The position numbers and the translations under genes are program-made. The notes under the pieces were generated by a model. It was not told where the DNA came from. It was given only the letters and a program-made list of their open reading frames with translations, and searched no databases. A stretch of 64,000 nucleotides of DNA from Arthrobacter sp. ISL-72 (GTDB lineage Bacteria; Actinomycetota; Actinomycetes; Actinomycetales; Micrococcaceae). Location: positions 186,001 through 250,000 of the forward strand of contig NZ_JAGGPP010000001.1 in NCBI RefSeq assembly GCF_018613755.1, given 5' to 3'. How positions within the stretch are numbered: position 1 is the stretch's first letter; every line of letters starts with the position of its first letter. Below are positions 44,257 through 64,000 of the stretch, piece by piece.

Positions 44257-45501
44257 ATGCGTCCGATGCAGCACTCCAGCAAACTCCAAAATGTCCGTTA
44301 CGAACTCCGCGGCCCTATCCTCCAGGCGGCAAAGGAGATGGAAGCCGAAGGCCACCGGATCCTCAAGATGAACCTTGGCGACACCGCACCCTTCGGGCTG
44401 GAGGCGCCCGAGTCCGTGGTGGTGGACATGATCCACCACTTGCGCGGCGCGCAGGGCTACAGCGATTCCAAAGGCATCTTCTCGGCCCGCACAGCCATTT
44501 CGCAGTACTACCAGACCCGGGGCCTGATGCAGATCGGCGTCGAGGACATCTTCATCGGCAACGGCGTGAGTGAGCTCATTTCCATGTGCCTGCAGGCGTT
44601 TATGGAAAATGGCGACGAAGTCCTCATTCCGGCCCCCGACTACCCGCTCTGGACGGCCGCCGTGACGCTGACGGGCGGCAAGCCCGTGCACTACTTGTGC
44701 GACGAGGATGAGCAGTGGTGGCCGGACATGGCCGACGTCGAAGCAAAGATCACCAAGCGCACCAAGGCAATCGTGATCATCAACCCGAACAATCCCACGG
44801 GGGCCGTCTACCCCCGCCACATCCTGGAGCAGTTTGCCGAGCTGGCGCGCAAGCACCGCCTGGTGCTGTTCTCAGATGAAATCTACGAAAAGATCCGGTA
44901 CGAGGACGCCGAGCACATCCATACGGCGTCGGTGGCCGAAGACGTTTGCTGCCTCACCTTCAGCGGGCTGTCCAAGGCCTACCGGATGCCGGGCTACCGT
45001 GCGGGCTGGGTGGCCGTCACCGGCCCGCGCGCCGCGACGCAGGCATACCGGGAAGGGCTCGAGCTGCTGGCCTCCCTCCGCCTGTGCCCCAACGTGCCGG
45101 CACAGCATGCGATCCAGACCTGCCTTGGCGGTTACCAAAGCATTGAGGCGCTGATCCGGCCTGGCGGCAGGCTGCGCGAGCAGCGCGACCGCGCGTTCGA
45201 GCTGCTGACTGCCATTCCCGGCGTCACGTGCGTCCCGGCGGCCGGCGCCATGTACCTGTTCCCGCGCCTTGACCCGGAGCTTTACCCGTTCAGAAGCGAC
45301 GAACAGTTCGTCCTGGACCTGTTGAAGGAACAGAAGATCCTGGTGTCACACGGCTCGGCGTTCAACTGGCCCCGGCCGGACCACTTCCGCTTTGTCATCC
45401 TTCCGGCCGTCGAGGACATTGAGGAAGCCGTGCGCAGGATCGCCACGTTCCTCGGCTCGTACCGGATCGGCGCGACCGACCAAGGGTACGTGCAGGACTG
45501 A
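44257..45501 (+). CDS. alaA: Alanine transaminase-type aminotransferase (AlaA-like)
   Basis: 414 residues from the ATG at 44257 (MRPMQHSSKLQNVRYELRGP); a GTG five codons upstream is possible. It matches E. coli AlaA along its length from memory: RILKMNLGDTAPFGLEAPES, IFIGNGVSELISMCLQAF, LIPAPDYPLWTAAVTLTGGK, IVIINPNNPTGAVYPRHILE and LFSDEIYEKIRYED. The Schiff-base Lys is in FSGLSKAYRMPGYRAGW, and LRLCPNVPAQHAIQTCLGGY and FNWPRPDHFRFVILPAVEDI follow. Known reaction: pyruvate + glutamate to alanine + 2-oxoglutarate, PLP-dependent, cytoplasmic. It is a single gene, separate from the fructan genes that follow. Confidence 0.9.
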   Translation: MRPMQHSSKLQNVRYELRGPILQAAKEMEAEGHRILKMNLGDTAPFGLEAPESVVVDMIHHLRGAQGYSDSKGIFSARTAISQYYQTRGLMQIGVEDIFIGNGVSELISMCLQAFMENGDEVLIPAPDYPLWTAAVTLTGGKPVHYLCDEDEQWWPDMADVEAKITKRTKAIVIINPNNPTGAVYPRHILEQFAELARKHRLVLFSDEIYEKIRYEDAEHIHTASVAEDVCCLTFSGLSKAYRMPGYRAGWVAVTGPRAATQAYREGLELLASLRLCPNVPAQHAIQTCLGGYQSIEALIRPGGRLREQRDRAFELLTAIPGVTCVPAAGAMYLFPRLDPELYPFRSDEQFVLDLLKEQKILVSHGSAFNWPRPDHFRFVILPAVEDIEEAVRRIATFLGSYRIGATDQGYVQD

Positions 45502-45557
45502 GGCCATCCAAGGGCAAGCCCCCCGTAGGATGAGGCGGCCAATCCCGTCCCGCACCG

Positions 45558-45609
45558 TTGACTTGTCTCGTGGACTTAATTTAGCGTTCCGTGCACTGAC
45601 AACGTTGTC
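45558..45609 (+). promoter_or_regulatory. Levanase promoter with LacI operator
   Basis: TTGACT (45558-45563), a 17-base spacer and TTAGCG (45581-45586) form a plausible promoter. GACAACGTTGTC (45598-45609) is a perfect 12-bp palindrome with central CG, just after the expected transcription start. The same core, as GACATCGTTGTC, occurs twice in the promoter region of the fructose ABC operon, so the LacI regulator at 49656-50696 is the likely binder. Confidence 0.75.
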
Positions 45610-45631
45610 TTTTTCAGGAAAGGCACGCGCG

Positions 45632-45688
45632 ATGAAGGGCGAGCTCGCACTATGCACAAATCACGAACCATTAGCCTGCGGACGGTGA
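45632..45688 (+). other. Short upstream ORF overlapping the levanase start
   Basis: ATG at 45632 with a strong ribosome-binding sequence (CAGGAAAGG, 8 bases before) opens an 18-codon frame, MKGELALCTNHEPLACGR, that overlaps the first 37 bases of the levanase frame. The levanase ATG itself has only a weak site. It could couple or limit levanase translation; this is speculative. Confidence 0.3.
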
Positions 45689-48261
45689 CAGCCGTGGCAT
45701 TGGCCGGGCTGGCCCTCGGCAGTGCCCTGGCCGGGGCCATCCCCGCCGGAGCCGACACCACGCAGGGGGAAGAACAGTATCGGCCGGCGTTCCACTTCTC
45801 GCCGGAGAAGAACTGGATGAACGATCCCAACGGAATGGTCTTCTACAAGGGCGTCTACCACCTGTATTACCAGCACAACCCGTCCGGAAACACCTGGGGC
45901 AACATGTCCTGGGGCCACGCGACATCCACGGACCTGGTCCACTGGAAGGAGCAGCCGCTGGCCATCCCCACTGATGACCAGCAGGACATCTTCTCCGGAA
46001 GCGTCGTGGTGGACAAGAACAATTCCTCCGGCTTCGGCACCACCGAAAATCCTCCCCTGGTGGCCATTTTCACCAGCGCCTACAAGGCATCGTCCCCCTA
46101 CCACGGCCTGCAGGCGCAGTCCCTGGCCTACAGCCTGGACCAGGGCCAGACCTGGACCAAGTACGCCCGGAATCCCGTCCTGAACCGCAACTCAGCAGAC
46201 TTCCGAGACCCCAAAGTCTTCTGGTACGACACCCCCGGCGGGGGCTACTGGGTGATGACCGCGGTGGAGGCCACTGAGCACAAGGTGGTCCTGTACAAAT
46301 CAGGCAACCTCAAGGACTGGACCCAGCTCAGTGAATTCGGGCCGGCCAACGCAACAGGAGGCCTCTGGGAATGCCCCGACCTCTTCCCCCTGGCAGTCGA
46401 CGGCAACCCGGACGTCAAGTGGGTCATGGTTGTCAACATCAACCCCGGCGGCGTGGCGGGGGGCTCGGCGGGCCAGTACTTCGTCGGCGACTTCGACGGC
46501 ACCACGTTCACCTCGGACACCACGGACCCGGTGGACTCCCTCCCGGCCGGAACCCCGCTGGCGGGCTTCAACGACGGCAGCTACGGCGGCTGGACGGTCA
46601 ACAACGAACCCGGCAACTGGAAGAACGGCCCGTTCGGTGACGCACCGGCGTCGGGAACGCTCCCCGGGCAGAACCAGGTCGTCGGCCATGCCGGCGCCGG
46701 CCTGGTCAATTCGTTCAACGACGGCGATTGGCCGCTGGGCTCCGCGAGCTCACCGGACTTCACGGTCAGCAGCGATTACCTCAACTTCCTCGTCGGCGGC
46801 GGACAGCACCCGCGGGTCTCGGACAAGCTGGACAATACGCCCCCGGCGGGAGAGCTGCTGTTCAATGGCTTCGAGGTTCCCGACGGGAGCACCCTGTCCG
46901 ACGCCGGCTGGACCGGGACAGCCGACCTGGCACCCGTGTTCCAGCCTGCCACGGCAGGCGGCGACTACTTCATCGGGGCCAAGCGGATCAACACCTTCGA
47001 AACAGGCGGAGCTCCCTCCGATGAGCGGCAGGGAACTTTGACATCCCCTGAGTTCACTCTCACGCGGGGATTCATGAGCATGCTCGTGGGCGGCGGGCAA
47101 CGCGACGCCGGCTCAAAGGAAGTCCTTGAAGTCCAGCTCCTGGTGGACGGCAACGTTGTCAGGACCCTCGCCGGAGACAACGCCGGAGCCCTCAACTGGA
47201 AGGGCTGGGATGTCGCTGAGTTCGCCGGACAGAATGCCCAGCTGAGGATCGTGGACCAGGCAGCCGGCGGCTGAGGACACCTCACGCTGGACCACGTCAT
47301 GCTGACGGACCAGGCCGCCGTTCCCCGGTCCGACGAAACCACCGTCAACCTGTTGGTGGACGGGCAAGTGGTCCGCTCCGCTACGGGCGCCAACAGCGAG
47401 GTCCTGGACTGGGCCTCCTGGAACGTCTCGGAGTTCAGGGGGCGGCAGGCCAGCATCCGGATCGTTGATAACAACCGCTTCGGCTGGGGGCACATCCTCG
47501 CCGACGAATTCGTAGCCTCGGCGGCACCGGCCAAGCCCCCGCTGCAGGGCTACGACTGGCTGGACTACGGCCGCGACTACTACGCCTCGGTGTCCTTCGG
47601 CAACATGCCCCAGGACAAGCGCGTCATGCTGGGATGGATGAACAACTGGGACTACGCCAACCTCATCCCCACCTCCCCCTGGCGCAGTGCCATGTCGCTG
47701 CCGCGGGAAGTCGGCCTGACGCAAACAGCGGACGGCCCCAGACTCACCCAGATTGCCGCAGCCCAGGTGGACAAGCTGGCCGCCAAGGCTTCCTACAGCG
47801 AGAAGAAAGCCCGCAGCATTGCGCCCGGCGTCCACCCGCTTCCGGCCCCAGCATGGGGCGATGTCCAGCGGATCGATGTGACGTTTGCGCCGGGGACAGC
47901 GGCGAAGTCGGGCATCACGGTCCTCGGCGACGGGACAGCGTCCACCACGATCGGCTACAACGCAGCGACAGGGGAGGTCTACGTGGACCGGAGCAACTCC
48001 GGAAACACCGGATTCCACCCGTTATTCACCTCTGTGGACTCGGCCCCGGTAAACGTGGACGCCAACGGGAACGTGACTCTGCGGGTGTATGTTGACCGCG
48101 CGTCCGTGGAGGTCTTCGCCCAAAACGGGCTGCGCACCATCACGGACCAGGTCTTCCCGGCTGCCGGCGCGCGCCAAGTGGCCTTGTTTGCCGAAGGCGG
48201 CACGGCCAGCATCAAGTCGCTGACGGTCACGCCGCTGGGCAAGGCAATGTTCACCGGGTAA
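45652..48261 (+). pseudogene. Secreted GH32 levanase / fructan beta-fructosidase, interrupted by an in-frame TGA
   Basis: One frame of 870 codons from 45652 to 48261 broken by a single TGA at 47272-47274 (codon 541). A signal peptide covers residues 1-35. Catalytic motifs are intact: WMNDPNG with nucleophile Asp58, RDP with Asp186 and ECP with acid/base Glu240. The blade sequence is then interrupted by inserted repeat modules (each with LLVDGxVVR and VGGGQ pieces) before the last blade WMNNWDYANLIPTSPWRSAM and the C-terminal beta-sandwich. The TGA falls in VDQAAGG-stop-GHLTLDHV; the next module reads VDNNRFGWGHILADEF, so a conserved Trp (TGG) has become TGA. The 540-residue product would lack the last propeller blade. 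Possible readings: nonsense mutation, read-through or sequencing error. Confidence 0.85.
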
Positions 48262-48274
48262 GGACGGGTCAGTG

Positions 48275-48313
48275 GGGCCTGTCGAAAACCGCGCAGCGGA
48301 TTTCGACAGGCCC
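48275..48313. terminator. Long hairpin after the levanase gene
   Basis: GGGCCTGTCGAAA (48275-48287) pairs with TTTCGACAGGCCC (48301-48313), and inside it CCGC pairs with GCGG around GCA. Seventeen pairs in total. It lies 14 bases after the stop and separates two convergent genes. Confidence 0.75.
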
Positions 48314-48354
48314 GCCCCCAACCGTCAGGCCCGCCCACCGTTAAGCCCGATCAG

Positions 48355-48389
48355 CCGGATCAGCTTGACGGCCCGGATCAGCTTGACGG
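48355..48389. repeat. 18-bp tandem duplication at the 3' end of the VOC gene
   Basis: CCGGATCAGCTTGACGG occurs at 48355-48371 and again at 48373-48389. The second copy covers the stop codon (48378-48380) of the minus-strand VOC gene. A recent small tandem duplication is the simplest explanation. Confidence 0.6.
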
Positions 48390-49223
48390 CGGCGTGAACT
48401 GGCTGGCTGTGAACTCTGCTCCCCCGGGGTCGCGGACCAGGGCAGCGCGTGTCCACCCGGTTTCGTATTGCCGAAGGACCGTGGCGCCGAGGCGCACCGC
48501 CAGGTCCACCACCTGGTCCCGGTCAGTCACCGTGAACGAGACATGCCAGTGCACCGGTTCCCCGGGATCCGCCGGCATGACCCAGCCGACCGCATCCTCA
48601 AAGCCGGCGGGAGTGAAATCGCCGGCCTGCCGGACCCTGATATCAGGGTCCACGGTGGCCTCCAAGTGGTCGCCGTAGCCCGGCCTGCGGATCATCGTCC
48701 CGTAATCCAGGTCATCGAACTGCCAATCGAATGCCGCAGCGTAAAAACCGGTAGCCGCGGAGATGTCCGCCGTGTGCAGGTCACTGAAATTCCAGCTGCC
48801 CGGAATGTTGACCGTCTGGGAACCCGGTCGCGCCCCTGCCTGCCAAAGGCGGAAACCGGCACCCCCGGGATCGGTCAGGGACGCCCGCACGCCGCCGGCG
48901 CCGCTGTCGGCCTGCACCGATTGGAGGGCCGCGCCGAGCGAGATGAGATGCCGAACAGCGGCATCGGCGTCATCGACCGCCGCATAGGTATTCCAGGCGG
49001 CAGGCCCGGTGCCTGGACTGCCGATCGCACCCACCTCGTTGCCGTCGAGTTTGGCCACGGCGTACCGGCCGCCGGAACCGGGGGCAAGCGCTTCTTCGAA
49101 TTCCCAGCCGAAGAGCCCGCCATAGAAATGGATGGCAGCGTCCACATCGGGCTGCTCGGTGTCGACCCAGGACGGGACGCCCGCCGGATAGGTCCGGCCG
49201 GACATCGCCGGAAATCGTGCCAT
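48378..49223 (-). CDS. VOC family protein with two glyoxalase-like domains
   Basis: 281 residues from the ATG at 49223 (MARFPAMSGRTYPAGVPSWV); the frame is open slightly further. TAGCGT, a -10-like box, lies about 8 bases before it, suggesting a leaderless mRNA. Two vicinal-oxygen-chelate domains are visible: WVDTEQPDVDAAIHFYGGLF with WEFEEA, then SWNFSDLHTADISAATGFYA with WQFDDL. Each continues with a beta-rich half ending LTDPGGAGFRLWQ or VRDPGGAEFTASQF. Two-domain VOC proteins of this kind are common in actinobacteria, often annotated as hydroxylases or glyoxalases; the substrate is unknown. Convergent with the levanase gene. Confidence 0.85.
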   Translation of the reverse strand: MARFPAMSGRTYPAGVPSWVDTEQPDVDAAIHFYGGLFGWEFEEALAPGSGGRYAVAKLDGNEVGAIGSPGTGPAAWNTYAAVDDADAAVRHLISLGAALQSVQADSGAGGVRASLTDPGGAGFRLWQAGARPGSQTVNIPGSWNFSDLHTADISAATGFYAAAFDWQFDDLDYGTMIRRPGYGDHLEATVDPDIRVRQAGDFTPAGFEDAVGWVMPADPGEPVHWHVSFTVTDRDQVVDLAVRLGATVLRQYETGWTRAALVRDPGGAEFTASQFTPPSS

Positions 49224-49655: not shown

Positions 49656-50696
49656 TCACGCCGGCGGCAGCTCCCCGGACCCCCGCTGGATGAGTTCCGA
49701 GGGCACCACGTATGTTGCAGGGGCTGTCCTGTCGCCGTCGATGCGGGCCAGCAGCCGCTCTGCCGCGCGCTTGCCGATCCGCTCGGGATGCTGGGCAATG
49801 ACTGTGATTCCGGGCTCCATCATGTCCGCCAGGGTGAAGTCATCGAACCCGACGAGGGCCACGTGTTTGCTGGCGTTCAGCTCCTTGAGCGCCCGCATCA
49901 CCCCGAAGGTGACCAGGTTCTGGCTGGAAAAGATGGCCGTGGGCGGGTCGTCGGAGGTCAGCAGCTCCAGGGCAGCCAGCCTCGCCGAGTCCTCGTCGTG
50001 CAGCCCTTCACGGACGGGAACGGCCGACGTCGCGACCCCCGCCGCTGCCAGTTCCTCCAGGAACCCCCGCCGCCGCTCCCTGGCGGTCTGGATTTCGACG
50101 CGGTCGCCCAGGTAGGCAAGCTTCCGGTGGCCGTGTGCCAGCAGATGGGCCGCCGCCTTCGCGCCGCCGACGGCGTTGTCCGTCACCACGGCGTCCGCGT
50201 CGATCCCCACGGGTTCGCGGTCAATGAAGACCATGGGGAGCTCGCGCGAGTGCTCGGGGATAACGTACGCCTGACTTTTGGCAATCGGCGTCAGCACCAG
50301 GCCATCCACCCTGCGGCCCAGGAAGGCCGCCACCAGCGCCTTCTCCCGCTGGGGATCGTCATCAAGGCTCGCAGCGAACACCGCGATTCCCCGTACGGCC
50401 AGGGCGTCTTCCAGCGCGCGGTGGATTTCGCCGCTGAACGGGTTGGACACGCTCGGCAGGAGCAATCCGATGCTCTGCGTCTGCCGGCCCGTCCGCCGCA
50501 GGCTGCCCGCGGCCATGTCCAGCTGGTAGTTCAGCTGCTGCGAGGCGCCGAGGACCCGGAGCCGGGTGGCCTCGGATACGCCCGGTTCGTCGTTCATGAC
50601 CCGCGACACCGTCTTGATGCCCACGCCGGCGAGCGCCGCCACGTGGCGCATGGTGGGCCTCCCCGCGGCGACCTCGGATTGGTAACGATTAGACAT
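49656..50696 (-). CDS. LacI-family transcriptional regulator of the fructan/fructose locus
   Basis: 346 residues from the ATG at 50696 (MSNRYQSEVAAGRPTMRHVA); a TTG three codons upstream lies too close to the ribosome-binding sequence. HTH: RHVAALAGVGIKTVSRVMND, with hinge ASQQLNYQLDMAAGSLRR. The effector domain has SIGLLLPSVSNPFSGEIHRA, DGLVLTPIAKSQAYVI, PMVFIDREPVGIDADAVVTD, HLLAHGHRKLAYLGDR and HVALVGFDDFTLADMMEPGI. The operator core GACATCGTTGTC overlaps its own start codon (50692-50703) and recurs before the divergent ABC operon (50770-50781); a close variant precedes the levanase gene 5 kb away. Likely a repressor relieved by fructose or a fructose phosphate. Confidence 0.93.
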   Translation of the reverse strand: MSNRYQSEVAAGRPTMRHVAALAGVGIKTVSRVMNDEPGVSEATRLRVLGASQQLNYQLDMAAGSLRRTGRQTQSIGLLLPSVSNPFSGEIHRALEDALAVRGIAVFAASLDDDPQREKALVAAFLGRRVDGLVLTPIAKSQAYVIPEHSRELPMVFIDREPVGIDADAVVTDNAVGGAKAAAHLLAHGHRKLAYLGDRVEIQTARERRRGFLEELAAAGVATSAVPVREGLHDEDSARLAALELLTSDDPPTAIFSSQNLVTFGVMRALKELNASKHVALVGFDDFTLADMMEPGITVIAQHPERIGKRAAERLLARIDGDRTAPATYVVPSELIQRGSGELPPA

Positions 50697-50781
50697 CGTT
50701 GTCAAACCTCGTCCTTCATTATCGATATTTCCCTTGACTCTACCCTGTGACGTTGGTTACATGATGGATGACATCGTTGTC
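50692..50781. promoter_or_regulatory. Two LacI operators and the promoter of the fructose ABC operon
   Basis: GACATCGTTGTC occurs at 50692-50703 (over the regulator's start codon) and at 50770-50781, centres 78 bases apart. Between them TTGACT (50734-50739), a 17-base spacer and TTACAT (50757-50762) form the operon promoter, with the expected start just before the second operator. Binding at both sites, perhaps with looping, would repress both directions. Confidence 0.8.
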
Positions 50782-50817
50782 AGGCGCAACTAGCGCCTCA
50801 CGGATACAGGAGATTCA

Positions 50818-51936
50818 ATGTTGAGTTCCACAGCCCCACGGACCCTCGCAACCCGCGTGCTCGCCCTCGGCGCCGTCCTGACGCTCGGCAGTCTCAGCCT
50901 GACGGCCTGCGGCGGGAATAACTCCACTTCCGCTGGCTCCACCGGCGCGTCAGATGAGAAGATCGGCGTCTCGCTCATCGTCAAGACGACGTCCAACCCG
51001 TTCTTCGTATCCATGCAGGACGGCGCCAAGAAGGCCGCCGAGGCCGACGGCGTGGACCTCAAGCTGGCTGCCGGAAAGGCCGACGGCGACGAGGACACCC
51101 AGATCCAGGCGATCGAAAACGCCATCTCCAAGGGCGACAAAGGCATCCTGATCACGCCCAACGGCCCCTCCGTCGTCGACGCCCTCAAGAAGGCCCGCGA
51201 CGCCGGCCTCTTTGTCATCGCGCTGGACACCCCGCCGGACCCCGCCGACGCCGTGGACATCACCTTCGCCACGGACAACTTCGAGGCCGGCAAGCTCATC
51301 GGCCAGTGGACCGCGGCGCAGCTGGAAGGCAAGAAAGCCACCATTGCGCTGCTGGATCTGTTCGACGACAAGGTCGTTTCGGTGGATTACAACCGGGACC
51401 AGGGCTTCCTCACCGGACTCGGCATCGACACCGCGGACAAGAAGAAGAACGGCGACGAGGCCAAGACCGGAAAGTACACGGGCGGCAAGGGCGGCGACTA
51501 CGAAATCGTCGGCAGCCAGGCGTCACAGGGCGCCGAAGACGGCGGCCGTACCGGGATGGAGACGCTGCTGTCCAAGAACCCGAACATCAATGTCGTCTAC
51601 ACCATCAACGAGCCCGCAGCGGCCGGCGCCTATGAAGCCCTGAAGTCCGCCGGCAAGGAAAAGGACGTGCTGGTGGTTTCGGTCGACGGCGGCTGCACGG
51701 GCGTCAACAACGTCAAGTCCGGTATCATCGGCGCCACTGCCCAGCAGTACCCGGTCAAGATGGCCGAACTAGGCGTGAAGGCCATCGTGGACCTGGCCAA
51801 GACCGGCAACAAGCCGTCCAACTCCGAAGGCCTGGACTTCTTCAACACCGGCGTCGAACTGGTGACCGACAAGGCCGCCTCCGGCGTCAAGAGCATCTCG
51901 ACGGCGGATGCTTCCCAGATCTGCTGGGGCAAGTAG
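50818..51936 (+). CDS. Sugar ABC transporter substrate-binding protein (CUT2, fructose/ribose type)
   Basis: 372 residues, ATG 6 bases after ACAGGAG. It is a lipoprotein: the signal ends SLSLTACGG, with Cys31 as lipid site. The type I periplasmic-binding fold is seen in KIGVSLIVKTTSNPFFVSMQ, DLKLAAGKADGDEDTQIQAI, GDKGILITPNGPSVVDALKK, GLFVIALDTPPDPADAVDIT and VVYTINEPAAAGAYEALKSA. Members of this group (FrcB/RbsB-like) bind monosaccharides. The nearby levanases and fructokinase point to fructose. It is the first gene of the operon behind the two LacI operators. Confidence 0.92.
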   Translation: MLSSTAPRTLATRVLALGAVLTLGSLSLTACGGNNSTSAGSTGASDEKIGVSLIVKTTSNPFFVSMQDGAKKAAEADGVDLKLAAGKADGDEDTQIQAIENAISKGDKGILITPNGPSVVDALKKARDAGLFVIALDTPPDPADAVDITFATDNFEAGKLIGQWTAAQLEGKKATIALLDLFDDKVVSVDYNRDQGFLTGLGIDTADKKKNGDEAKTGKYTGGKGGDYEIVGSQASQGAEDGGRTGMETLLSKNPNINVVYTINEPAAAGAYEALKSAGKEKDVLVVSVDGGCTGVNNVKSGIIGATAQQYPVKMAELGVKAIVDLAKTGNKPSNSEGLDFFNTGVELVTDKAASGVKSISTADASQICWGK

Positions 51937-51960
51937 GCCGGGACCATGACAGGAGCAACC

Positions 51961-53004
51961 GTGACGCAGCAGCAAACCGCGGGACCGCCCGCCGCCGGGC
52001 ATGACCTGGCCGAGGAGTTCCTGGACCGCCGGACACCCCTGAGCCGGATCCGCAACGTCCTGCACCGCTACCCTGCCCTCAGCCCGGCCATCGTCCTGCT
52101 CGTGGCCGTGATCGTCTTCGGGCTTCTCAACGACCGCTTCCTGCGCGTGGAGAACCTGTCGCTGATCACCCAGCAGGTGGCCGTCGTCGGCACCCTCGCC
52201 ATTGCGCAGACGCTGATCATCCTCACCGCCGGCATCGACCTCTCGGTGGGCGCCGTGATGATCCTTGCCTCCATGGTGGTGGCCCAGATTGCCGTCGGCA
52301 ACGGGTTCCCCGGGCCGCTGGCCCTGCTGGCCGGGCTCGTCATCGGCCTGGCCGCGGGAGCCTTCAACGGCTTCCTGGTGACAAGGTTCAGGCTCCCCCC
52401 GTTCATCGTGACGCTGGGAACCCTGAACATCTTCATCGCCCTGACCCTGCTGTATTCCGGCGGGTCCACCGTCCGCGGCTCCAGCATGCCGGACCTGCTG
52501 ACCTGGACCGGAAGCACCTTCCCGGTGGGCCCGGTGCGGATTTCCACCGGCGTGGTGATGATGCTGCTGCTCTACGTGGCGATGGCGTTCATCCTGGGCA
52601 AGACAGCCTGGGGACGGCACGTCTACGCAGTGGGCGATGACAAGGAAGCCGCCCGGCTCGCCGGCATCCCCGTCAACCGCGTCCTCATGAGCGTCTACCT
52701 CGCCGCCGGTGCCGTCCTGGCCATCGGCGCCTGGATCCAGATCGGCCGGACCAACGCCGCCAGCCCGAACGCCGGAGTCGACCTGAACCTGGACTCCATC
52801 ACCGCCGTCGTGATCGGCGGCACCAGCCTGTTCGGCGGCCGCGGTTCCGTCTGGGGATCCCTCCTCGGAGCGCTCATCGTGGGCGTGTTCCGCAACGGCC
52901 TCTCCCTGGCAGGCCTGGACGTGCTGTACCAGACGCTCGCCGTGGGCATCCTGATCATCATCGCTGTGTCGGTTGACCAGTGGATCCGAAAGGTCAAGTC
53001 ATGA
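51961..53004 (+). CDS. Sugar ABC transporter permease (CUT2, FrcC/RbsC type)
   Basis: 347 residues from the GTG at 51961, which has AGGAG 5 bases before it; an ATG at 51946 is the alternative with a weaker site. About ten transmembrane segments. RbsC-family motifs: VVGTLAIAQTLIILTAGIDL followed by SVGAVMILASMVVA, GAFNGFLVTRFRLPPFIVTL, GWGRHVYAVG-like sequence (AWGRHVYAVGDDKEAARLAG) and ITAVVIGGTSLFGGRGSVWG, the coupling region. It probably forms a homodimer in the membrane. The stop overlaps the ATPase start by 4 bases. It is the middle gene of the fructose import operon. Confidence 0.92.
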   Translation: MTQQQTAGPPAAGHDLAEEFLDRRTPLSRIRNVLHRYPALSPAIVLLVAVIVFGLLNDRFLRVENLSLITQQVAVVGTLAIAQTLIILTAGIDLSVGAVMILASMVVAQIAVGNGFPGPLALLAGLVIGLAAGAFNGFLVTRFRLPPFIVTLGTLNIFIALTLLYSGGSTVRGSSMPDLLTWTGSTFPVGPVRISTGVVMMLLLYVAMAFILGKTAWGRHVYAVGDDKEAARLAGIPVNRVLMSVYLAAGAVLAIGAWIQIGRTNAASPNAGVDLNLDSITAVVIGGTSLFGGRGSVWGSLLGALIVGVFRNGLSLAGLDVLYQTLAVGILIIIAVSVDQWIRKVKS

Positions 53005-53795
53005 CCGCAACAGACGTACAGTCCGCCAAACCGGAAACCCGCCAGCCGATCCTCCAGGCCCGTAACCTCGTCAAGACCTTCGGCCGGGTGGTTGGCCTCG
53101 ACGGGGTCAGCCTGGACCTCTACCCCGGCGAGGTCCTCGCCATCATCGGCGACAACGGCGCCGGCAAGTCCACCCTGATCAAATGCCTGACCGGCGCGGA
53201 GATTCCCGATTCCGGGGAGCTGACGGTGTCCGGCCAGCAGGTGCACTTCAAGCGGCCGCAGGATGCCCGGGCGCACGGCATCGAAACCGTGTACCAGAAC
53301 CTGGCGGTCTCGCCGGCCCTGGACGTGGCCTCCAACCTGTTCCTGGGCCGGGAGGAACGCCTGCCCGGGCCGCTGGGGAAGATCTTCCGCGTCCTGGACA
53401 CGAAAGGAATGCGCCGCAAGGCCAAGGAGGAGCTGACGCGGCTGGGTATTTCGACGCTGCAGGACGTGACGGTGCCAGTGGAGAACCTTTCCGGCGGCCA
53501 GCGCCAGGCAGTGGCGGTGGCGCGGGCCGCGGCGTTCGGTTCCAAGGTGGTGGTCCTGGACGAGCCGACGGCGGCACTCGGTGTCCGCGAATCCAACCAG
53601 GTCCTGCAGCTTGTGCGGGACCTGCGGGACCGGGGACTGCCCGTCATCCTGATCAGCCACAATATGCCGCACGTGTTCGACGTCGCCGACCGCATCCACA
53701 TCCAGCGCCTCGGCAAGTGCGCGGCCACGATCACCCCGGAGTCGCACAGCATGACTGACGCCGTGGCCATCATGACCGGCGCGGCCACCGCCTGA
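53001..53795 (+). CDS. Sugar ABC transporter ATP-binding protein, single NBD (FrcA type)
   Basis: 264 residues from the ATG at 53001, which overlaps the permease stop. A single nucleotide-binding domain: Walker A IIGDNGAGKSTLIKCLTG, Q-loop region ETVYQNLAVSPALDVASNLF, signature ENLSGGQRQAVAVARA, Walker B VVVLDEPTAALGVRESNQVL and switch His LISHNMPHVF. Most CUT2 ATPases have two fused domains; the one-domain form of about 260 residues is the FrcA type known from fructose importers. That agrees with the fructokinase gene downstream. The mRNA then passes repeats and a strong hairpin before the kinase gene. Confidence 0.92.
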   Translation: MTATDVQSAKPETRQPILQARNLVKTFGRVVGLDGVSLDLYPGEVLAIIGDNGAGKSTLIKCLTGAEIPDSGELTVSGQQVHFKRPQDARAHGIETVYQNLAVSPALDVASNLFLGREERLPGPLGKIFRVLDTKGMRRKAKEELTRLGISTLQDVTVPVENLSGGQRQAVAVARAAAFGSKVVVLDEPTAALGVRESNQVLQLVRDLRDRGLPVILISHNMPHVFDVADRIHIQRLGKCAATITPESHSMTDAVAIMTGAATA

Positions 53796-53800
53796 AAGGC

Positions 53801-53851
53801 GCAATTACACCGCGCAGTTACACCCGGCAGTTACACCGCGCAGTCTTCACC
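53801..53851. repeat. Degenerate 13-bp tandem repeats between the ABC operon and the kinase gene
   Basis: Units read GCAATTACACC, GCGCAGTTACACC (53812), CGGCAGTTACACC (53825) and GCGCAGTCTTCACC (53838); weaker copies continue to about 53884. The non-coding gap is 146 bases. Likely slippage-type expansion; no function is visible. Confidence 0.65.
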
Positions 53852-53889
53852 AGAAGCAGCAGTTCCACCCCCTCCAGCTACACCAGGCT

Positions 53890-53923
53890 CCGTCCGCGGA
53901 CCGGATCACCGGTCCGCGGACGG
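53890..53923 (+). terminator. Strong intra-operon hairpin before the fructokinase gene
   Basis: CCGTCCGCGGACCGG (53890-53904), ATCA, CCGGTCCGCGGACGG (53909-53923): fifteen perfect pairs. There is no T-tract. It could attenuate read-through from the ABC genes or protect their mRNA 3' end; the kinase gene starts 18 bases later. Confidence 0.6.
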
Positions 53924-53941
53924 CTTCACGAAAGAGATGCC

Positions 53942-54901
53942 ATGTCCAACCCCGGTTCCCTGTCCGCCCCCGCCCGCAGCCTCGATGTGGTTGTGGTCGG
54001 CGAGGCGCTGATCGACGTCGTCAGCCGTCCCGACGGCGACGTGGAGCACCCCGGCGGTTCGCCGGCGAACGTCGCGTACGGGCTCGGGAGGCTGGGCGTC
54101 AGCACCGGGCTGCTCACGGCAATCGGCGACGACGCCCGCGGGGCGGCGATTGAGGACCACCTCGCCGGCGCGGGTGTCGAGCTGCTGCCGGCCGCCAGGT
54201 CACTGGCACGCACCGCCTCGGCAACGGCCACTATCGCCGCGGACGGTTCGGCCAGCTACGTCTTTGACATTGAGTGGCGGCTGGAGCCGGTAGTGCCGGC
54301 CTACTTTCCCAAAGTCCTGCACACCGGCTCAATCGCCACGTTCCTGGCGCCCGGTGCGGGCACCGTCCGGTCACTGCTGGAGCAGGCCCACCGGGATTGC
54401 ATGATCACCTACGACCCCAACATCAGGCCGGCACTGCTCGGCAGCCACGGCGAGGCAAAGTCCCTTTTCGAGGAACTCGTCCCGTTGACCGACGTCGTCA
54501 AGCTCAGCGACGAAGACGCCCGCTGGCTGTACCCGGGGCAGGATCTGGAACAGACGGCGGAGCGGATCCTGCAGCTCGGCACCGGACTTGCCGTGATTAC
54601 CGCCGGAGCCGAAGGGTCCCTCCTTGCCACCAGCGGAACCCAGCTCACCATCCCGTCGGTGGCCACCACCGTGGCGGACACCATCGGCGCCGGGGATTCC
54701 TACATGGCCGCGCTGATCCTGGGCCTGCTGACCCGGGGCGCCGACGGCTTGGCCCCCGCGGTGCTCGAAGCCATCGGCCGGACGGCATCGGCAGCTGCCG
54801 CCATCACGGTCAGCCGTCCGGGCGCCAACCCGCCGACGCTCGACGAACTCCGGGCAGCCCAGGAGCCGGCAGCTCAGGACGTGGCAGCCATCGGGGTGTA
54901 G
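53942..54901 (+). CDS. PfkB-family carbohydrate kinase, probable fructokinase
   Basis: 319 residues. The ribokinase/PfkB family is shown by signature 1, GGSPANVAYGLGRLGVSTGL (about residues 38-57), and signature 2, VADTIGAGDSYMAALILGLL (about 243-262), which holds the catalytic Asp and the anion hole GAGD. The start SLDVVVVGEALIDVVSRPDG is typical of fructokinases, as is YDPNIRPALLG. Known reaction: ATP-dependent phosphorylation of fructose, usually to fructose 6-phosphate. It follows the fructose ABC importer after a 146-base gap with repeats and a hairpin. The 3' end overlaps the second GH32 gene by 28 bases on the other strand. Confidence 0.92.
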   Translation: MSNPGSLSAPARSLDVVVVGEALIDVVSRPDGDVEHPGGSPANVAYGLGRLGVSTGLLTAIGDDARGAAIEDHLAGAGVELLPAARSLARTASATATIAADGSASYVFDIEWRLEPVVPAYFPKVLHTGSIATFLAPGAGTVRSLLEQAHRDCMITYDPNIRPALLGSHGEAKSLFEELVPLTDVVKLSDEDARWLYPGQDLEQTAERILQLGTGLAVITAGAEGSLLATSGTQLTIPSVATTVADTIGAGDSYMAALILGLLTRGADGLAPAVLEAIGRTASAAAAITVSRPGANPPTLDELRAAQEPAAQDVAAIGV

Positions 54902-56832
54902 CTGAACGACTTGAGCGTCAGCGTTCCGTCCTTGCTCAATGCCTGCAGCCCCTTTGGATCACCGGCAGAAAAGACCAGCGACGACAGGGTCTTTTCCCCG
55001 CCGTTGGCGAAGACCTCAACGGAGCTGTGGTCCACGAAGACCGTCAGCTGGACCTTGCCGTCCCGGGGAGGGGTTTCCGCCCGCCGGACTGTGCCGTATT
55101 CGGGGGCGAGTCCGGCGGTTTCCCTGGCGGCTCCGTCCCGTGACACGAACGCTGTTTCTGATTCGAAGTCATAGCCCACCGTGGCGAAAACCCCGTTCCC
55201 GGCCAGCAGTTCCACCTTGGCTTCGGAGCCTTCATCACCGGCAGCGCGTTCGAGCGTCAGGTCGAGCCGGTACGCACCGCCCGCGGGCTGAGGCAGCCCC
55301 TCGGCGCCGGCGGGGGTAAGCTTGCGGTCCTCCACGGTAGTGGTGTCACCTTCGAGTGACTTCAGCGCATCCGTGGGGGTGGATACCAGGGTGCGCTTTC
55401 CGGCGATTGTCTTCAGCCGGATGTCCCTGACCACGGTGTCCATGCCGCCGTGCCAGTCCTTCGTGGGCAGCTTGCGGGCGTAGCTCCAGTTGTTCAGCCA
55501 GGCGATCGCATGGCGCGAGCCCATCCGCTGGCTCTCCGTGAGCCGGGGATCGTCCCAGGTCACGGCGGCGTAAAAGTCCGGGCCGTCGTCCAGCCACTGG
55601 TGCTCCGCATGCGCAGGCTCAAAGCGGGTCCCGTCCCAGGTCCCCGTCCAGTAAGCCACCCCGGTGGTCTTGCCTTCCTCTGCCCCGTTGGCGCTGGCGG
55701 CCAGCACCCACGTTCGTTTGGACGGGTCGCCGTCGACGTCGAGCTGGAAGAGTTCCGGGCACTCGAGGATTCCGAGGCCCTTGCCTTCAAAACCCGAAAG
55801 GTAGCGCCATTCCTTCAGGTTGGAAGAAGCGTACAGGCCGATCTTCTCCCCCTCTGCCAAAGCCATGACCCACTGGTTGTTGGCTTCATCGCGGATGATT
55901 TTCGGATCACGCCAATGCTGTTCCCCGGGGTTGTCCATCACGGGGTTGCCGTCGTAGGCCTTGAACGAATACCCCTTGTCCGTCGAATAGAACAGCGACT
56001 GCCGCTGCACGCCCTCGTCCTGCTGCGTCATCACGGCGATGACGGCGCCCTCGCCGAACCCGGCGGTGTTCCCGTAATCCACCACGGCACTGCCCGTCTC
56101 GATGTCGCCGAGGCCGTTCTTGTACTTCTCGATGGCCACGCCTTCGTCCCTCCAGTGCACCAGGTCGGTGCTGGTGACGTGGTACCACTCAGTGCCGTTT
56201 TCCTCCGGGTAACCCGAGTTGTAGAGGTAGTAGTAGTGCCACTGACCGTCCAGCCAGAAGGGCCGCTGGGGATCGTTCATCCAGTTTTCCCGCGGCGTGA
56301 GGTGGTAGCCGGGACGGTAGGCCGAGGCTCCGTCCGGACGCTCGAACGCTGACTCTGCCGGCGCCGGCAGCTCCGGTCCGGCGCCAAGGTCGGCCAGCAT
56401 GGCGGTCACCGCTTCGGGGGTGACGCAGTCGGGCCGCGGAATGTCAGCCGAGCCTGCCAGCACCACCTGGTCCCCCGCGCTGGACCGCGCATAGACTTCC
56501 TGCCCCACCCGTGCCGCGGCCACCCAGCCGTCGGCGCATTCGATCGTGCGGAGGTCTGCGACCCCCTCCGTCCGCAGCGGATGCGCCAGGGCCTCCAGGC
56601 TGCGGTCCCCGCCGGCCAGCCAGAATGAGCCGTAGCGGCCCTTCGCCTTTTTGGCCTCCGACTGTGCCTTGGCGATGTCAGCCAGCGCTTCCTCGGCCGG
56701 GCCGGGCGGAGCGGGCCGCGACCCGACGCCCGCCACGATGGCCACGGCCACCAGCACCAGGGCTGCGGCAGCGGCCACCGCGGCCCACAGGGCCCGCGGA
56801 GTGATTTTGTTGGGAAAAAACCTGAGTGACAT
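54874..56832 (-). CDS. Membrane-anchored GH32 enzyme, endo-levanase / levan fructotransferase-like
   Basis: 652 residues from the ATG at 56832; a GTG two codons upstream is possible, and neither has a clear ribosome-binding site. A basic N-terminus and one long hydrophobic helix (about 14-38) have no lipobox. About 120 residues follow that are unusual for GH32: DIAKAQSEAKKAKGRYGSFW, ECADGWVAAARVGQEVYARS, two Cys, resembling a pilin-like extracellular domain. The catalytic domain starts near YHLTPRENWMNDPQRPFWLD; this NDPQRP form occurs in B. subtilis LevB-type endo-levanases and Arthrobacter levan fructotransferases rather than exo-fructosidases. Catalytic residues: Asp187, Asp309 in WRDPK, Glu357 in LECPELF. 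The gene converges on the fructokinase and looks intact. Confidence 0.88.
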   Translation of the reverse strand: MSLRFFPNKITPRALWAAVAAAAALVLVAVAIVAGVGSRPAPPGPAEEALADIAKAQSEAKKAKGRYGSFWLAGGDRSLEALAHPLRTEGVADLRTIECADGWVAAARVGQEVYARSSAGDQVVLAGSADIPRPDCVTPEAVTAMLADLGAGPELPAPAESAFERPDGASAYRPGYHLTPRENWMNDPQRPFWLDGQWHYYYLYNSGYPEENGTEWYHVTSTDLVHWRDEGVAIEKYKNGLGDIETGSAVVDYGNTAGFGEGAVIAVMTQQDEGVQRQSLFYSTDKGYSFKAYDGNPVMDNPGEQHWRDPKIIRDEANNQWVMALAEGEKIGLYASSNLKEWRYLSGFEGKGLGILECPELFQLDVDGDPSKRTWVLAASANGAEEGKTTGVAYWTGTWDGTRFEPAHAEHQWLDDGPDFYAAVTWDDPRLTESQRMGSRHAIAWLNNWSYARKLPTKDWHGGMDTVVRDIRLKTIAGKRTLVSTPTDALKSLEGDTTTVEDRKLTPAGAEGLPQPAGGAYRLDLTLERAAGDEGSEAKVELLAGNGVFATVGYDFESETAFVSRDGAARETAGLAPEYGTVRRAETPPRDGKVQLTVFVDHSSVEVFANGGEKTLSSLVFSAGDPKGLQALSKDGTLTLKSFSYTPMAATS

Positions 56833-56851
56833 AGACACCGATCATCGTGAT

Positions 56852-61532: not shown

Positions 61533-61931
61533 TCAGCCCATTGCAGGTGCCAGGGACCGTCCGGATGACAGCTGCTTCCGGGCCCAGCGGGCGAATTTCT
61601 TGCCCTTGCCCTTCCACCAATTGTCCTCGTCCTTGTCGTGGTGCAGGCGGAAGATGATCATCACCATTACAAAGACACCCATGACGACGTCCATCCAGGA
61701 CCAGAACACGGCGTCCATCAGCACGCTAATGCCCATGACCAGGACCGACGGCACTGCGAGCGTCCGGAAAATGGTGCTGGCCACGTAGCGCCGGTGGGAT
61801 CTGGGCACCGACAGGGCGCGGACCATGTCGAAGCAGACGCACACCACCACCATCGCCTGGCCCAGGGACAGCAGGACCTGCCCGGCCATGGATCCGGCGA
61901 ACATGGCAACCGATTCCATCCCCGGGCTCAT
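61533..61931 (-). CDS. Small hypothetical membrane protein
   Basis: 132 residues with about four hydrophobic segments: ESVAMFAGSMAGQVLLSLGQ and AMVVVCVCFDMVRALS, then IFRTLAVPSVLVMGISVLMD and WMDVVMGVFVMVMIIFRLHH. The C-terminal tail is strongly basic (KGKGKKFARWARKQ) and cytoplasmic by the positive-inside rule. No family recognised. It converges on the SNF2 gene with about 17 bases between. The start is the ATG at 61931; no strong ribosome-binding sequence is visible. Codon usage is compatible with a real gene. Confidence 0.6.
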   Translation of the reverse strand: MSPGMESVAMFAGSMAGQVLLSLGQAMVVVCVCFDMVRALSVPRSHRRYVASTIFRTLAVPSVLVMGISVLMDAVFWSWMDVVMGVFVMVMIIFRLHHDKDEDNWWKGKGKKFARWARKQLSSGRSLAPAMG

Positions 61932-62165
61932 CGGACGCCGCCCATCGTTTCAGGGCGCGGACAGGACACGACGGGACTGCAGAAAACACACATAAGGAAT
62001 ACCCCCAGAGACCAGAGACAAGCTGTGAGACCAAGCTGTGCTCCATTGAAGCCGCTGCCGCTCCGGTCCGTCACGAGTAGTCTGTACTCTATTCTTCCGG
62101 GGCGGAGTGCAGAGCGCTCTTCCGGGTACTCAGTCCGGACGGGGGTGTCCTGCCGCGGCGTGCTG
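61932..62165. other. Intergenic region before the small membrane protein
   Basis: No gene seen. It contains GAGTA/TACTC (a small hairpin near 62077-62091) and the palindrome AGAGCGCTCT (62111-62120). The urtE stop is at its right edge. A promoter for the minus-strand membrane-protein gene is presumably here but no clear boxes were seen. Confidence 0.35.
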
Positions 62166-62858: not shown

Positions 62859-63661
62859 CAGTGCCCTTCCAATCCGGCAGTTCCCAGATACACGTCCTGC
62901 ACTTTCTTGTCAGCCTGCACCTGTGCCACGCTTCCCTCGCTCAGGACCTTTCCGGCCGCGAGGACGGTCACCGACGTGGCGAACTCCCGGACGAAATTCA
63001 TATCATGTTCGATCACCAGTGTGATGCGGCTCGCAGCGATCCGGCGCAGGAGGAGCCCTGTTTCGTCACGCTCGTCCTGGCTCATTCCGGCGATGGGTTC
63101 GTCTAGCAGCAGCACCTCCGCGTTCTGGACAAGCAGCATGCCGATCTCCAGCCACTGCTTTTGCCCGTGCGCCAGCGTTCCGGCCTGCTTGTCCGCTGCC
63201 TTTTCGAGCCCAATGATCTCCAAGGCTTCCTGCACTGCGGGGTCCACCCTCGTCCGGCGCCGCAGCAACTCCGCGGCCTTCCGGCCGGGGCCGGCGGCTA
63301 TGTCCAGGTTCTGAAGCACTGAGAGGTTCTCGAAGACGCTCGCCGTTTGGAACGTCCGGCCGACGCCCAGTCGCGCGATCTTGTGCACCTTCCGGCCCAG
63401 GATCTCGGTGCCGGTGTGGTTCACTGACCCAGCGGCCGGAACCAAGCCGGTGATCGCGTCAATGATGGTTGTCTTGCCGGCCCCGTTGGGTCCGATCAGG
63501 AACCGCAAATCCCCCTGGATGACGTCGAGGGTCACCCTGTCGACGGCAACGAACCCGTCGAAGGCCACGGTGAGGTCGCGTACCTCCAAGTACTTGGGTC
63601 GGCCGTGGCGGAGTCCGCCGGCGCGTGGCTCGCCGTCGGGCAGCAGCGCGGGGGTGGTCAT
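62858..63661 (-). CDS. urtD: Urea ABC transporter ATP-binding subunit UrtD
   Basis: 267 residues. A LivG-type nucleotide-binding protein: KYLEVRDLTVAFDGFVAVDR, Walker A LIGPNGAGKTTIIDAITG, the segment VGRTFQTASVFENLSVLQNL, signature TLAHGQKQWLEIGMLLVQNA (the HGQKQWLEIGM form is a UrtD hallmark), Walker B VLLLDEPIAGMSQDERDETG and switch VIEHDMNFVREFATSVTVLA. The ATG overlaps the urtC stop by 4 bases and the stop overlaps urtE by one base, so the three are co-translated. Urea uptake is usually nitrogen-regulated; no regulatory site is inside the window. Confidence 0.92.
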   Translation of the reverse strand: MTTPALLPDGEPRAGGLRHGRPKYLEVRDLTVAFDGFVAVDRVTLDVIQGDLRFLIGPNGAGKTTIIDAITGLVPAAGSVNHTGTEILGRKVHKIARLGVGRTFQTASVFENLSVLQNLDIAAGPGRKAAELLRRRTRVDPAVQEALEIIGLEKAADKQAGTLAHGQKQWLEIGMLLVQNAEVLLLDEPIAGMSQDERDETGLLLRRIAASRITLVIEHDMNFVREFATSVTVLAAGKVLSEGSVAQVQADKKVQDVYLGTAGLEGH

Positions 63662-64000
63662 CTGCTTGCCTCTTCCGGGACATTCGCTGCGGTGGCTGGT
63701 GCTGGGTGGGCAGGTTCCGGCGCGTGCGTGGCCGGCGCGGTGGCCGACCCCTTGCCGCCGCGTTCGATCCGCCGCCGCTTCAGCCGGGAAACGAGTTGCG
63801 GCAGCGACGCGAGGCCGCCCGGCATGAACCCGATGACCAGTACGAAAAGCAGGCCCTGGAAATAGACCCAGAAGGACGGAAACGTGGAGGCCAGGCTGGT
63901 CTGGGCAACGGCCACGCCAAGCGCGCCAAGGACCGGCCCCAGCAGAGTGGCCCTGCCGCCGATCGCCACACCGATCAGGAAGGCGATGGACGGAATGACG
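63658..64000 (-). CDS. urtC: Urea ABC transporter permease UrtC, C-terminal part (5' end outside window)
   Basis: The frame is open to the window edge on the minus strand. The visible 113 residues read from VIPSIAFLIGVAIGGRATLL through GPVLGALGVAVAQTSLASTF, with PSFWVYFQGLLFVLVIGFMP then GGLASL. This matches the end of UrtC/LivM-type permeases (the VAIGGRGTL and FPxxWLYxxGxLF patterns). A Pro/Ala-rich tail follows (GKGSATAPATHAPEPAHPAP). It forms the channel with UrtB. The stop overlaps the urtD start. The rest of the urt operon should lie beyond base 64000. Confidence 0.88.
   Translation of the reverse strand, partial: VIPSIAFLIGVAIGGRATLLGPVLGALGVAVAQTSLASTFPSFWVYFQGLLFVLVIGFMPGGLASLPQLVSRLKRRRIERGGKGSATAPATHAPEPAHPAPATAANVPEEASR

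What the first reader, a model, noticed from the sequence alone, without database searches (positions are those of the whole stretch)
47272..47274. In-frame TGA replaces a conserved Trp in the secreted levanase
The 870-codon GH32 frame continues on both sides of one TGA. The following repeat module in the same protein has FGWGH where this module has GG-stop-GH, so a single TGG to TGA change is the simplest history. The truncated product lacks the last propeller blade, so the strain may have lost exo-levanase activity, may rely on read-through (stop followed by G), or the base may be a sequencing error. No selenocysteine context is suggested because the site matches Trp.
Basis: partly seen in the sequence, partly recalled or inferred. 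Interest (0 to 1): 0.62.

Follow-up and report, generated by a model that had tools for sequence, protein, structure and literature searches.

The report
Recent nonsense mutation in secreted fructanase
One soil Arthrobacter-like strain carries a stop signal in the middle of its secreted fructan-digesting enzyme, at a tryptophan that its relatives keep; this looks like an ordinary, very young gene-breaking mutation or, less likely, a base-call error, not a new genetic mechanism.

Summary
ORF 45652-48261 is a GH32 fructanase frame of 870 codons (end stop included), interrupted once by TGA at 47272-47274 (codon 541). Codon 541 is TGG in all 89 distinct homologous proteins compared (51-89% identical), none with a stop in its aligned stretch. 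The TGA is thus private to this genome among those compared. The codons after it evolve as slowly as those before it (dN/dS 0.08-0.10 against 0.116), so the stop is very recent, read through, or an error. Nothing found would decode it: one ordinary tRNA-Trp(CCA), as in 12 of 12 congeners, no UCA anticodon among 51 tRNAs, release factor 2 present. The product would end inside a nested carbohydrate-binding-like insert and lose about the last propeller blade and the C-terminal beta-sandwich. GH32 endo-levanase BT1760 without its C-terminal module lost about 4,000-fold activity, so loss of function is likely. Seven other GH32 loci show no stop in their matched domains. Best reading: a young nonsense (null) allele. 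A base error remains possible because no reads or sister strains could be examined. Low interest.

The parts
45652..48261 (+). GH32 fructanase gene (870 codons with its end stop), interrupted by one in-frame TGA; secretion signal at the N-terminus judged by eye
   Evidence: ORF list and read-through translation; Pfam GH32N 48-292 and GH32C 736-860
47272..47274 (+). in-frame TGA at codon 541, TGG (Trp) in all homologues compared
45652..47271 (+). part that would be translated: 540 residues with the catalytic motifs WMNDPNG, FRDP and WECPD, then 2 incomplete insert domains
   Evidence: catalytic roles of the motifs recalled from GH32 knowledge
46549..47553 (+). insert in the propeller (residues 300-634): jelly-roll domain A, apparently split by an inner jelly-roll domain B; the stop falls just before the strand 545-552, read as the last strand of B
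   Evidence: models (pLDDT 91.8 for the insert alone); carbohydrate-binding-module-like matches that span 1 or 2 to about 326 (46 of 50 rows) or about 97-102 to 262 (4 of 50 rows); half-module alignments
47275..48261 (+). part not translated without read-through: last strand of B, second half of A, the last part of GH32N (about the last blade), the C-terminal beta-sandwich
   Evidence: GH32N positions 238-298 match at window 47518-47724; GH32C at residues 736-860; low dN/dS
45597..45610 (+). LacI-operator-like palindrome TGACAACGTTGTCT upstream of the gene
   Evidence: present at the same place in Y81 and SPG23; the search pattern was drawn from this site
50691..50782 (+). 2 similar palindromes (50691-50704, at the start of the LacI-type gene, and 50769-50782, between it and the importer genes)
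49659..50705 (-). LacI-family regulator, frame open against both relatives
50818..54889 (+). sugar importer genes (binding protein, permease, ATPase) and a PfkB-type sugar kinase, frames open against both relatives
54877..56838 (-). second GH32 gene in the same locus, frame open against both relatives

Best explanation
A very recent point mutation turned a Trp codon, kept in every homologue compared, into TGA in the one GH32 gene found in this genome that carries the nested insert. Translation most likely stops after 540 residues. The product keeps the catalytic motifs but lacks the last part of the five-bladed propeller and the whole C-terminal beta-sandwich, so it should not fold into an active enzyme. 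The strain is therefore probably null for this secreted fructanase but keeps 7 other GH32 loci, the importer and the regulator. Shown: the stop, its absence from the homologues compared, the conservation of the codon, the lack of decay after it, and the absence of an evident suppressor. Inferred: inactivity of the product, and that the base is real.
For: Codon 541 is TGG in 89 of 89 distinct homologous proteins, none with a stop in its aligned stretch. It is a one-base difference from the Y81 and SPG23 codon. dN/dS to Y81 is 0.116 before and 0.083 after the stop; to SPG23 0.116 and 0.098. For changes private to the window it is 0.100 and 0.073, and a crude Poisson bound puts drift after the stop at no more than about 0.5 to 10.5% of the branch, depending on the constraint assumed. 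Single tRNA-Trp(CCA) with a 5-bp anticodon stem and G24, matching over 77 of 77 queried bases in 11 and 76 of 77 in 1 of 12 congeners; no UCA anticodon among 51 tRNAs; one prfB match above cut-off, without a stop. Truncated GH32: both N-terminal-module variants of endo-levanase BT1760 lost about 4,000-fold activity although only the C-terminal module was removed (PMC6560043, section read).
Against: No other decay is visible in the gene, in the compared neighbours or in two large families of the genome, which also fits a single base error. No reads, coverage or second strain of the species could be examined. Activity of the truncated product was not tested.
Confidence: 0.76

Rival explanations
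1. Sequencing or assembly error: the strain has an intact gene and the TGA is a false base.
For: The stop is the only lesion seen; the rest of the frame is under normal constraint and no other gene in the compared neighbourhood is broken deep inside. The assembly is a 56-contig draft.
Against: 0 of 114 ABC_tran matches hold a stop; of 116 MFS matches 3 do, and in each the match runs past the end of an open ORF. So consensus errors that break genes are not common here, as far as matched domains show. A lone substitution in a consensus is less frequent than real young nonsense alleles (general knowledge, not measured here).
Confidence: 0.16
2. Leaky or regulated read-through: TGA is read as Trp by the normal tRNA-Trp at some rate, giving little full-length enzyme and much truncated protein.
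For: Purifying selection after the stop. Belinky et al. 2021 (PMC7918605; abstract and passages seen) report that in-frame stops in bacterial genes often keep dN/dS significantly below 1, and that TGA is leaky, with Trp inserted at very low frequency.
Against: None of 89 distinct homologues has the stop, so the low dN/dS can have been built up while the codon was TGG. tRNA-Trp has neither a short anticodon stem nor A24, features reported to raise UGA reading (PMC13092985, abstract and passages), and matches that of congeners. Belinky et al. [quoted passage not shown]
Confidence: 0.06
3. The gene now works as two polypeptides: a secreted 540-residue part and a re-initiated 320-residue part from ATG 47299.
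For: An ATG-started 320-residue ORF begins 8 codons after the stop.
Against: By eye there is no ribosome-binding site and no secretion signal before it; the break falls inside a beta-sandwich domain. Separated modules of BT1760 neither bound nor hydrolysed levan.
Confidence: 0.02

Closest known systems
Young nonsense alleles / recent pseudogenes of bacteria
   Same: One private premature stop in an otherwise constrained gene
   Different: No further decay; a base error is not excluded
GH32 exo-inulinase InuAMN8 (PDB 8i12)
   Same: Best sequence and fold match of the core (phmmer E 4e-181; Foldseek TM 0.93 on the target)
   Different: The solved chain has about 490-520 residues, so it has no room for the 335-residue insert; it is not interrupted
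Intact GH32 genes of Arthrobacter sp. Y81 and SPG23 in the same neighbourhood
   Same: 89 and 88% identical, same neighbours, same operator-like site
   Different: TGG at codon 541
Bacterial genes with in-frame stops that keep low dN/dS (Belinky et al. 2021, PMC7918605; abstract and passages seen)
   Same: In-frame stop with purifying selection on both sides
   Different: Here no homologue compared shares the stop, so the selection signal says nothing about read-through

Membership tests
Glycoside hydrolase family 32 | GH32 N- and C-terminal domains | tested here: met
   PF00251 E 1.1e-94 and PF08244 E 1.8e-32 on the read-through frame
Glycoside hydrolase family 32 | Catalytic motifs WMNDPNG, RDP and EC (roles recalled) | tested here: met
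   D58, R185-D186-P187 and E240-C241 invariant in 39 of 39 rows, the read-through window protein included
Exo-levanase (substrate levan, exo mode) | Activity on levan from the chain end | not testable with these tools
   Nearest solved structure is an exo-inulinase; substrate unknown
Nonsense allele / young pseudogene | Premature stop where intact relatives have a sense codon | tested here: met
   89 of 89 distinct proteins have TGG
Nonsense allele / young pseudogene | Relaxed selection after the lesion (expected only of older pseudogenes) | tested here: not met
   dN/dS 0.083 and 0.098 after the stop, 0.116 before; so not an old pseudogene
Nonsense allele / young pseudogene | Loss of the product's function | not testable with these tools
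   Inferred from the missing domains and from BT1760
Recoded or read-through gene (TGA = Trp) | Suppressor or altered tRNA-Trp | tested here: not met
   One tRNA-Trp CCA with normal stem, matching congeners; no UCA anticodon among 51
Recoded or read-through gene (TGA = Trp) | Stop conserved among relatives | tested here: not met
   0 of 89 distinct homologues
Recoded or read-through gene (TGA = Trp) | Full-length protein is made | not testable with these tools
   Needs proteomics
Selenoprotein | TGA at a Cys/Sec position and a tRNA-Sec | tested here: not met
   Site is Trp in all 89 homologues; no tRNA-Sec among the 51 tRNAs read, which the general tRNA model could miss
Carbohydrate-binding-module-like beta-sandwich (insert) | Jelly-roll fold | tested here: met
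   Best rows 8xmz Z 12.2 (rmsd 2.6, 126 aligned), CBM61 2xom Z 11.0 (3.2, 136), CBM16 3oeb Z 10.7 (2.9, 125); unrelated sandwich proteins (meprin MAM, reelin) score 10-11 too, so a fold class, not a family
Carbohydrate-binding-module-like beta-sandwich (insert) | Binds a sugar | not testable with these tools
   A shared fold shows no function

The most novel reading that the evidence does not exclude
The TGA is tolerated because normal tRNA-Trp reads it often enough. Secreted fructanase is then made at a low, tunable level, and an abundant truncated protein with half of a carbohydrate-binding-like insert is made beside it.
Probability: 0.05. Interest if true: 0.45.

Novelty: new member of a known kind. 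Interest (0 to 1): 0.14.

Why it matters
It matters mainly for annotation: this strain should not be credited with the secreted insert-bearing fructanase unless reads show otherwise. It also warns that low dN/dS across a stop does not show read-through when the stop is private. If read-through were shown, it would be a small natural example of a leaky TGA controlling a public-goods enzyme.

Tried and rejected
Altered tRNA-Trp or suppressor tRNA: rejected for lack of any candidate. Selenocysteine: rejected, the site is Trp and no tRNA-Sec was seen. Old pseudogene: rejected by dN/dS. Natural end of the protein at this point: rejected, no homologue compared ends there.

Other broken genes nearby: I compared 342 ORFs from stretches of Y81 and SPG23 with the window and its two 20-kb flanks; 106 passed a third-position filter. 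The confirmed stretches lie between about window 21.9 kb and 13 kb past its end, with gaps; the first 21.9 kb of the window were not compared. Rows with stops were sorted by eye: most are antisense shadows of open genes, or lie upstream of a start or at a C-terminal end. Two needed a closer look. At 61536-62093 (-) a TGA stands opposite Cys in both relatives, but a start codon follows it and the rest is open, so I took it as upstream of the real start. At 62907-63701 (+) a TGA stands opposite Cys, but an open 267-residue ABC-type ATPase-like ORF covers the place on the other strand (named by eye). Only the fructanase has a stop deep inside its sense frame.

The PDB sequence search with the first insert piece gave only polyubiquitin-type rows over some 30-70 residues (best E 1e-12, with no stretch passing on its own), taken as a repeat artefact. 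Pfam on the two insert pieces gave nothing but one chance-level row (E 0.2). The promoter and terminator scan of 45480-48400 found nothing. Seven paper searches listed no paper that by title or abstract start deals with this gene or with a GH32 with such an insert; only open-licence papers are held, and I opened 3. The codon-540 tally printed was spoiled by alignment gaps and is not used.

Full report
What is there. The ORF from ATG 45652 runs 540 codons to TGA 47272-47274 and, in the same frame, on to TAA 48259-48261. Read through, it is an 869-residue GH32 protein: PF00251 at 48-292 and PF08244 at 736-860, with an N-terminus that looks like a secretion signal (by eye). The rest of the GH32 N-terminal profile (positions 238-298) matches at window 47518-47724. 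The propeller is therefore interrupted by an insert of about 335 residues, and the stop lies inside that insert.

The insert. AlphaFold models of the whole protein (pLDDT 85.4) and of the insert alone (pLDDT 91.8) show mostly strands. In the structural second look, 46 of the 50 rows listed run from residue 1 or 2 to about 326 while aligning mostly 114-149 residues, and 4 of 50 cover about 97-102 to 262: best 8xmz Z 12.2 (rmsd 2.6, 126 aligned), CBM61 2xom Z 11.0, CBM16 3oeb Z 10.7. Such ranges give only first and last residues, so the nesting is inferred from them together with the half-module alignments: the second halves are 46% identical over 63 residues, the first halves 40% over 43. The simplest reading is that domain B sits inside domain A, which sits inside the propeller. 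Pfam does not recognise the two pieces tested (one chance-level row). The stop comes just before the strand 545-552, read as the last one of B.

Is the stop shared? Loci came from relatives (41 of the 59 genomes searched, own included, had some match) and from one scan of GTDB genomes (the best 80 of at least 578 kept). Of 98 alignment rows across codon 541 that are not the window's own, 89 are distinct proteins, 51-89% identical; a few are paralogues. All 89 have TGG and none has a stop in its aligned stretch. One (L075, a Paenarthrobacter MAG) has a frame break elsewhere. The window's own two rows have TGA. The two nearest relatives, Y81 and SPG23, read GGG TGG GGA and GGC TGG GGA; the window reads GGC TGA GGA: one G-to-A change in the codon.

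How old? Pairwise dN/dS to Y81 is 0.116 over 540 codons before the stop and 0.083 over 327 after it; to SPG23 it is 0.116 and 0.098. For changes private to the window it is 0.100 before and 0.073 after; a Poisson bound limits drift after the stop to about 0.5% (constraint as before the stop) up to 10.5% (no tolerated changes at all) of the branch. The method is crude (Nei-Gojobori counts, only codons at which Y81 and SPG23 agree). It excludes an old pseudogene; it cannot tell a young mutation from an error or from efficient read-through.

Can the cell read it? The genome has 51 tRNA matches; ARAGORN read the anticodons in 30 loci and 19 stretches that cover them all: one tRNA-Trp, CCA, and no UCA. 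It has a 5-bp anticodon stem and G24 and matches over 77 of 77 queried bases in 11 and over 76 of 77 in 1 of 12 congeners. A 4-bp stem or A24 would raise UGA reading (PMC13092985, abstract and passages). prfB is present above cut-off over 351 of 353 positions with no stop. So nothing special favours read-through; ordinary low leakage is always possible.

Is the assembly full of such lesions? In the same genome 0 of 114 ABC_tran matches contain a stop. Of 116 MFS matches 3 do, and in all 3 the match runs past the end of an open ORF. This control sees only stops inside matched domains. Around the gene, the comparison with Y81 and SPG23 shows only this gene with a stop deep in its sense frame; it covers the window from about 21.9 kb on, with gaps, and rows were sorted partly by eye.

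What it does to the enzyme. GH32 enzymes have a five-bladed propeller joined to a C-terminal beta-sandwich (PMC6560043, passages and one section). In BT1760 the isolated N-terminal modules lost about 4,000-fold activity and did not bind levan. The 540-residue product here lacks more than that: the last part of the propeller as well as the sandwich. Loss of activity is thus likely, though inferred across a distant relative.

Setting. A LacI-type regulator, importer genes, a sugar kinase and a second GH32 gene follow, with open frames against both relatives. A palindrome, TGACAACGTTGTCT, lies upstream of the fructanase, and two like it lie at the start of the regulator gene and between it and the importer; like sites at the same places are in Y81 and SPG23. 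The pattern was drawn from the first site, so only the others are independent; the 8 matches in the window, against a mean of 1.3 in shuffles, include one inside the fructanase gene and four with 3 mismatches. The gene thus still looks wired as part of a fructan locus. Seven other GH32 loci have no stop within the matched domain. The two nearest paralogues (C2, C16) lack the insert and show no evident signal peptide (by eye); a 1,264-residue GH32 on C33 appears secreted (by eye). Fructan use may therefore be reduced rather than lost.

Verdict. A young private nonsense allele is most likely (0.76), an error next (0.16), functional read-through unlikely (0.06), a split enzyme very unlikely (0.02). 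Ordinary in kind.

Noticed in passing
46549-47553: The GH32 propeller carries a jelly-roll domain that itself seems to hold a second jelly-roll domain: a double nesting present in all 38 homologues aligned (Arthrobacter, Microbacterium, Agromyces and others). Pfam does not recognise the two pieces tested; its sugar, if any, is unknown.
   Followed up: partly
L189:108-184 (-), G000:C54:51550-51850: A low-scoring tRNA-like gene that ARAGORN reads with a four-base anticodon (cccc); of the 18 other genomes searched 3 gave only short partial matches and 15 none. Could be a degenerate tRNA or a frameshift-type tRNA.
   Followed up: partly
L075:6990-7060: The homologue in a Paenarthrobacter MAG has a frame break near residue 673: another lesion in this gene family, or an assembly error.
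   Followed up: no
45597-45610, 50691-50704, 50769-50782: LacI-operator-like palindromes upstream of the fructanase and around the start of the LacI-type gene, with like sites at the same places in Y81 and SPG23.
   Followed up: partly
G000:C33:102489-106283: A 1,264-residue GH32 protein with an apparent signal peptide (by eye), close to another GH32 match and to ABC transporter ATPase matches: perhaps a second fructan locus in the same genome.
   Followed up: no
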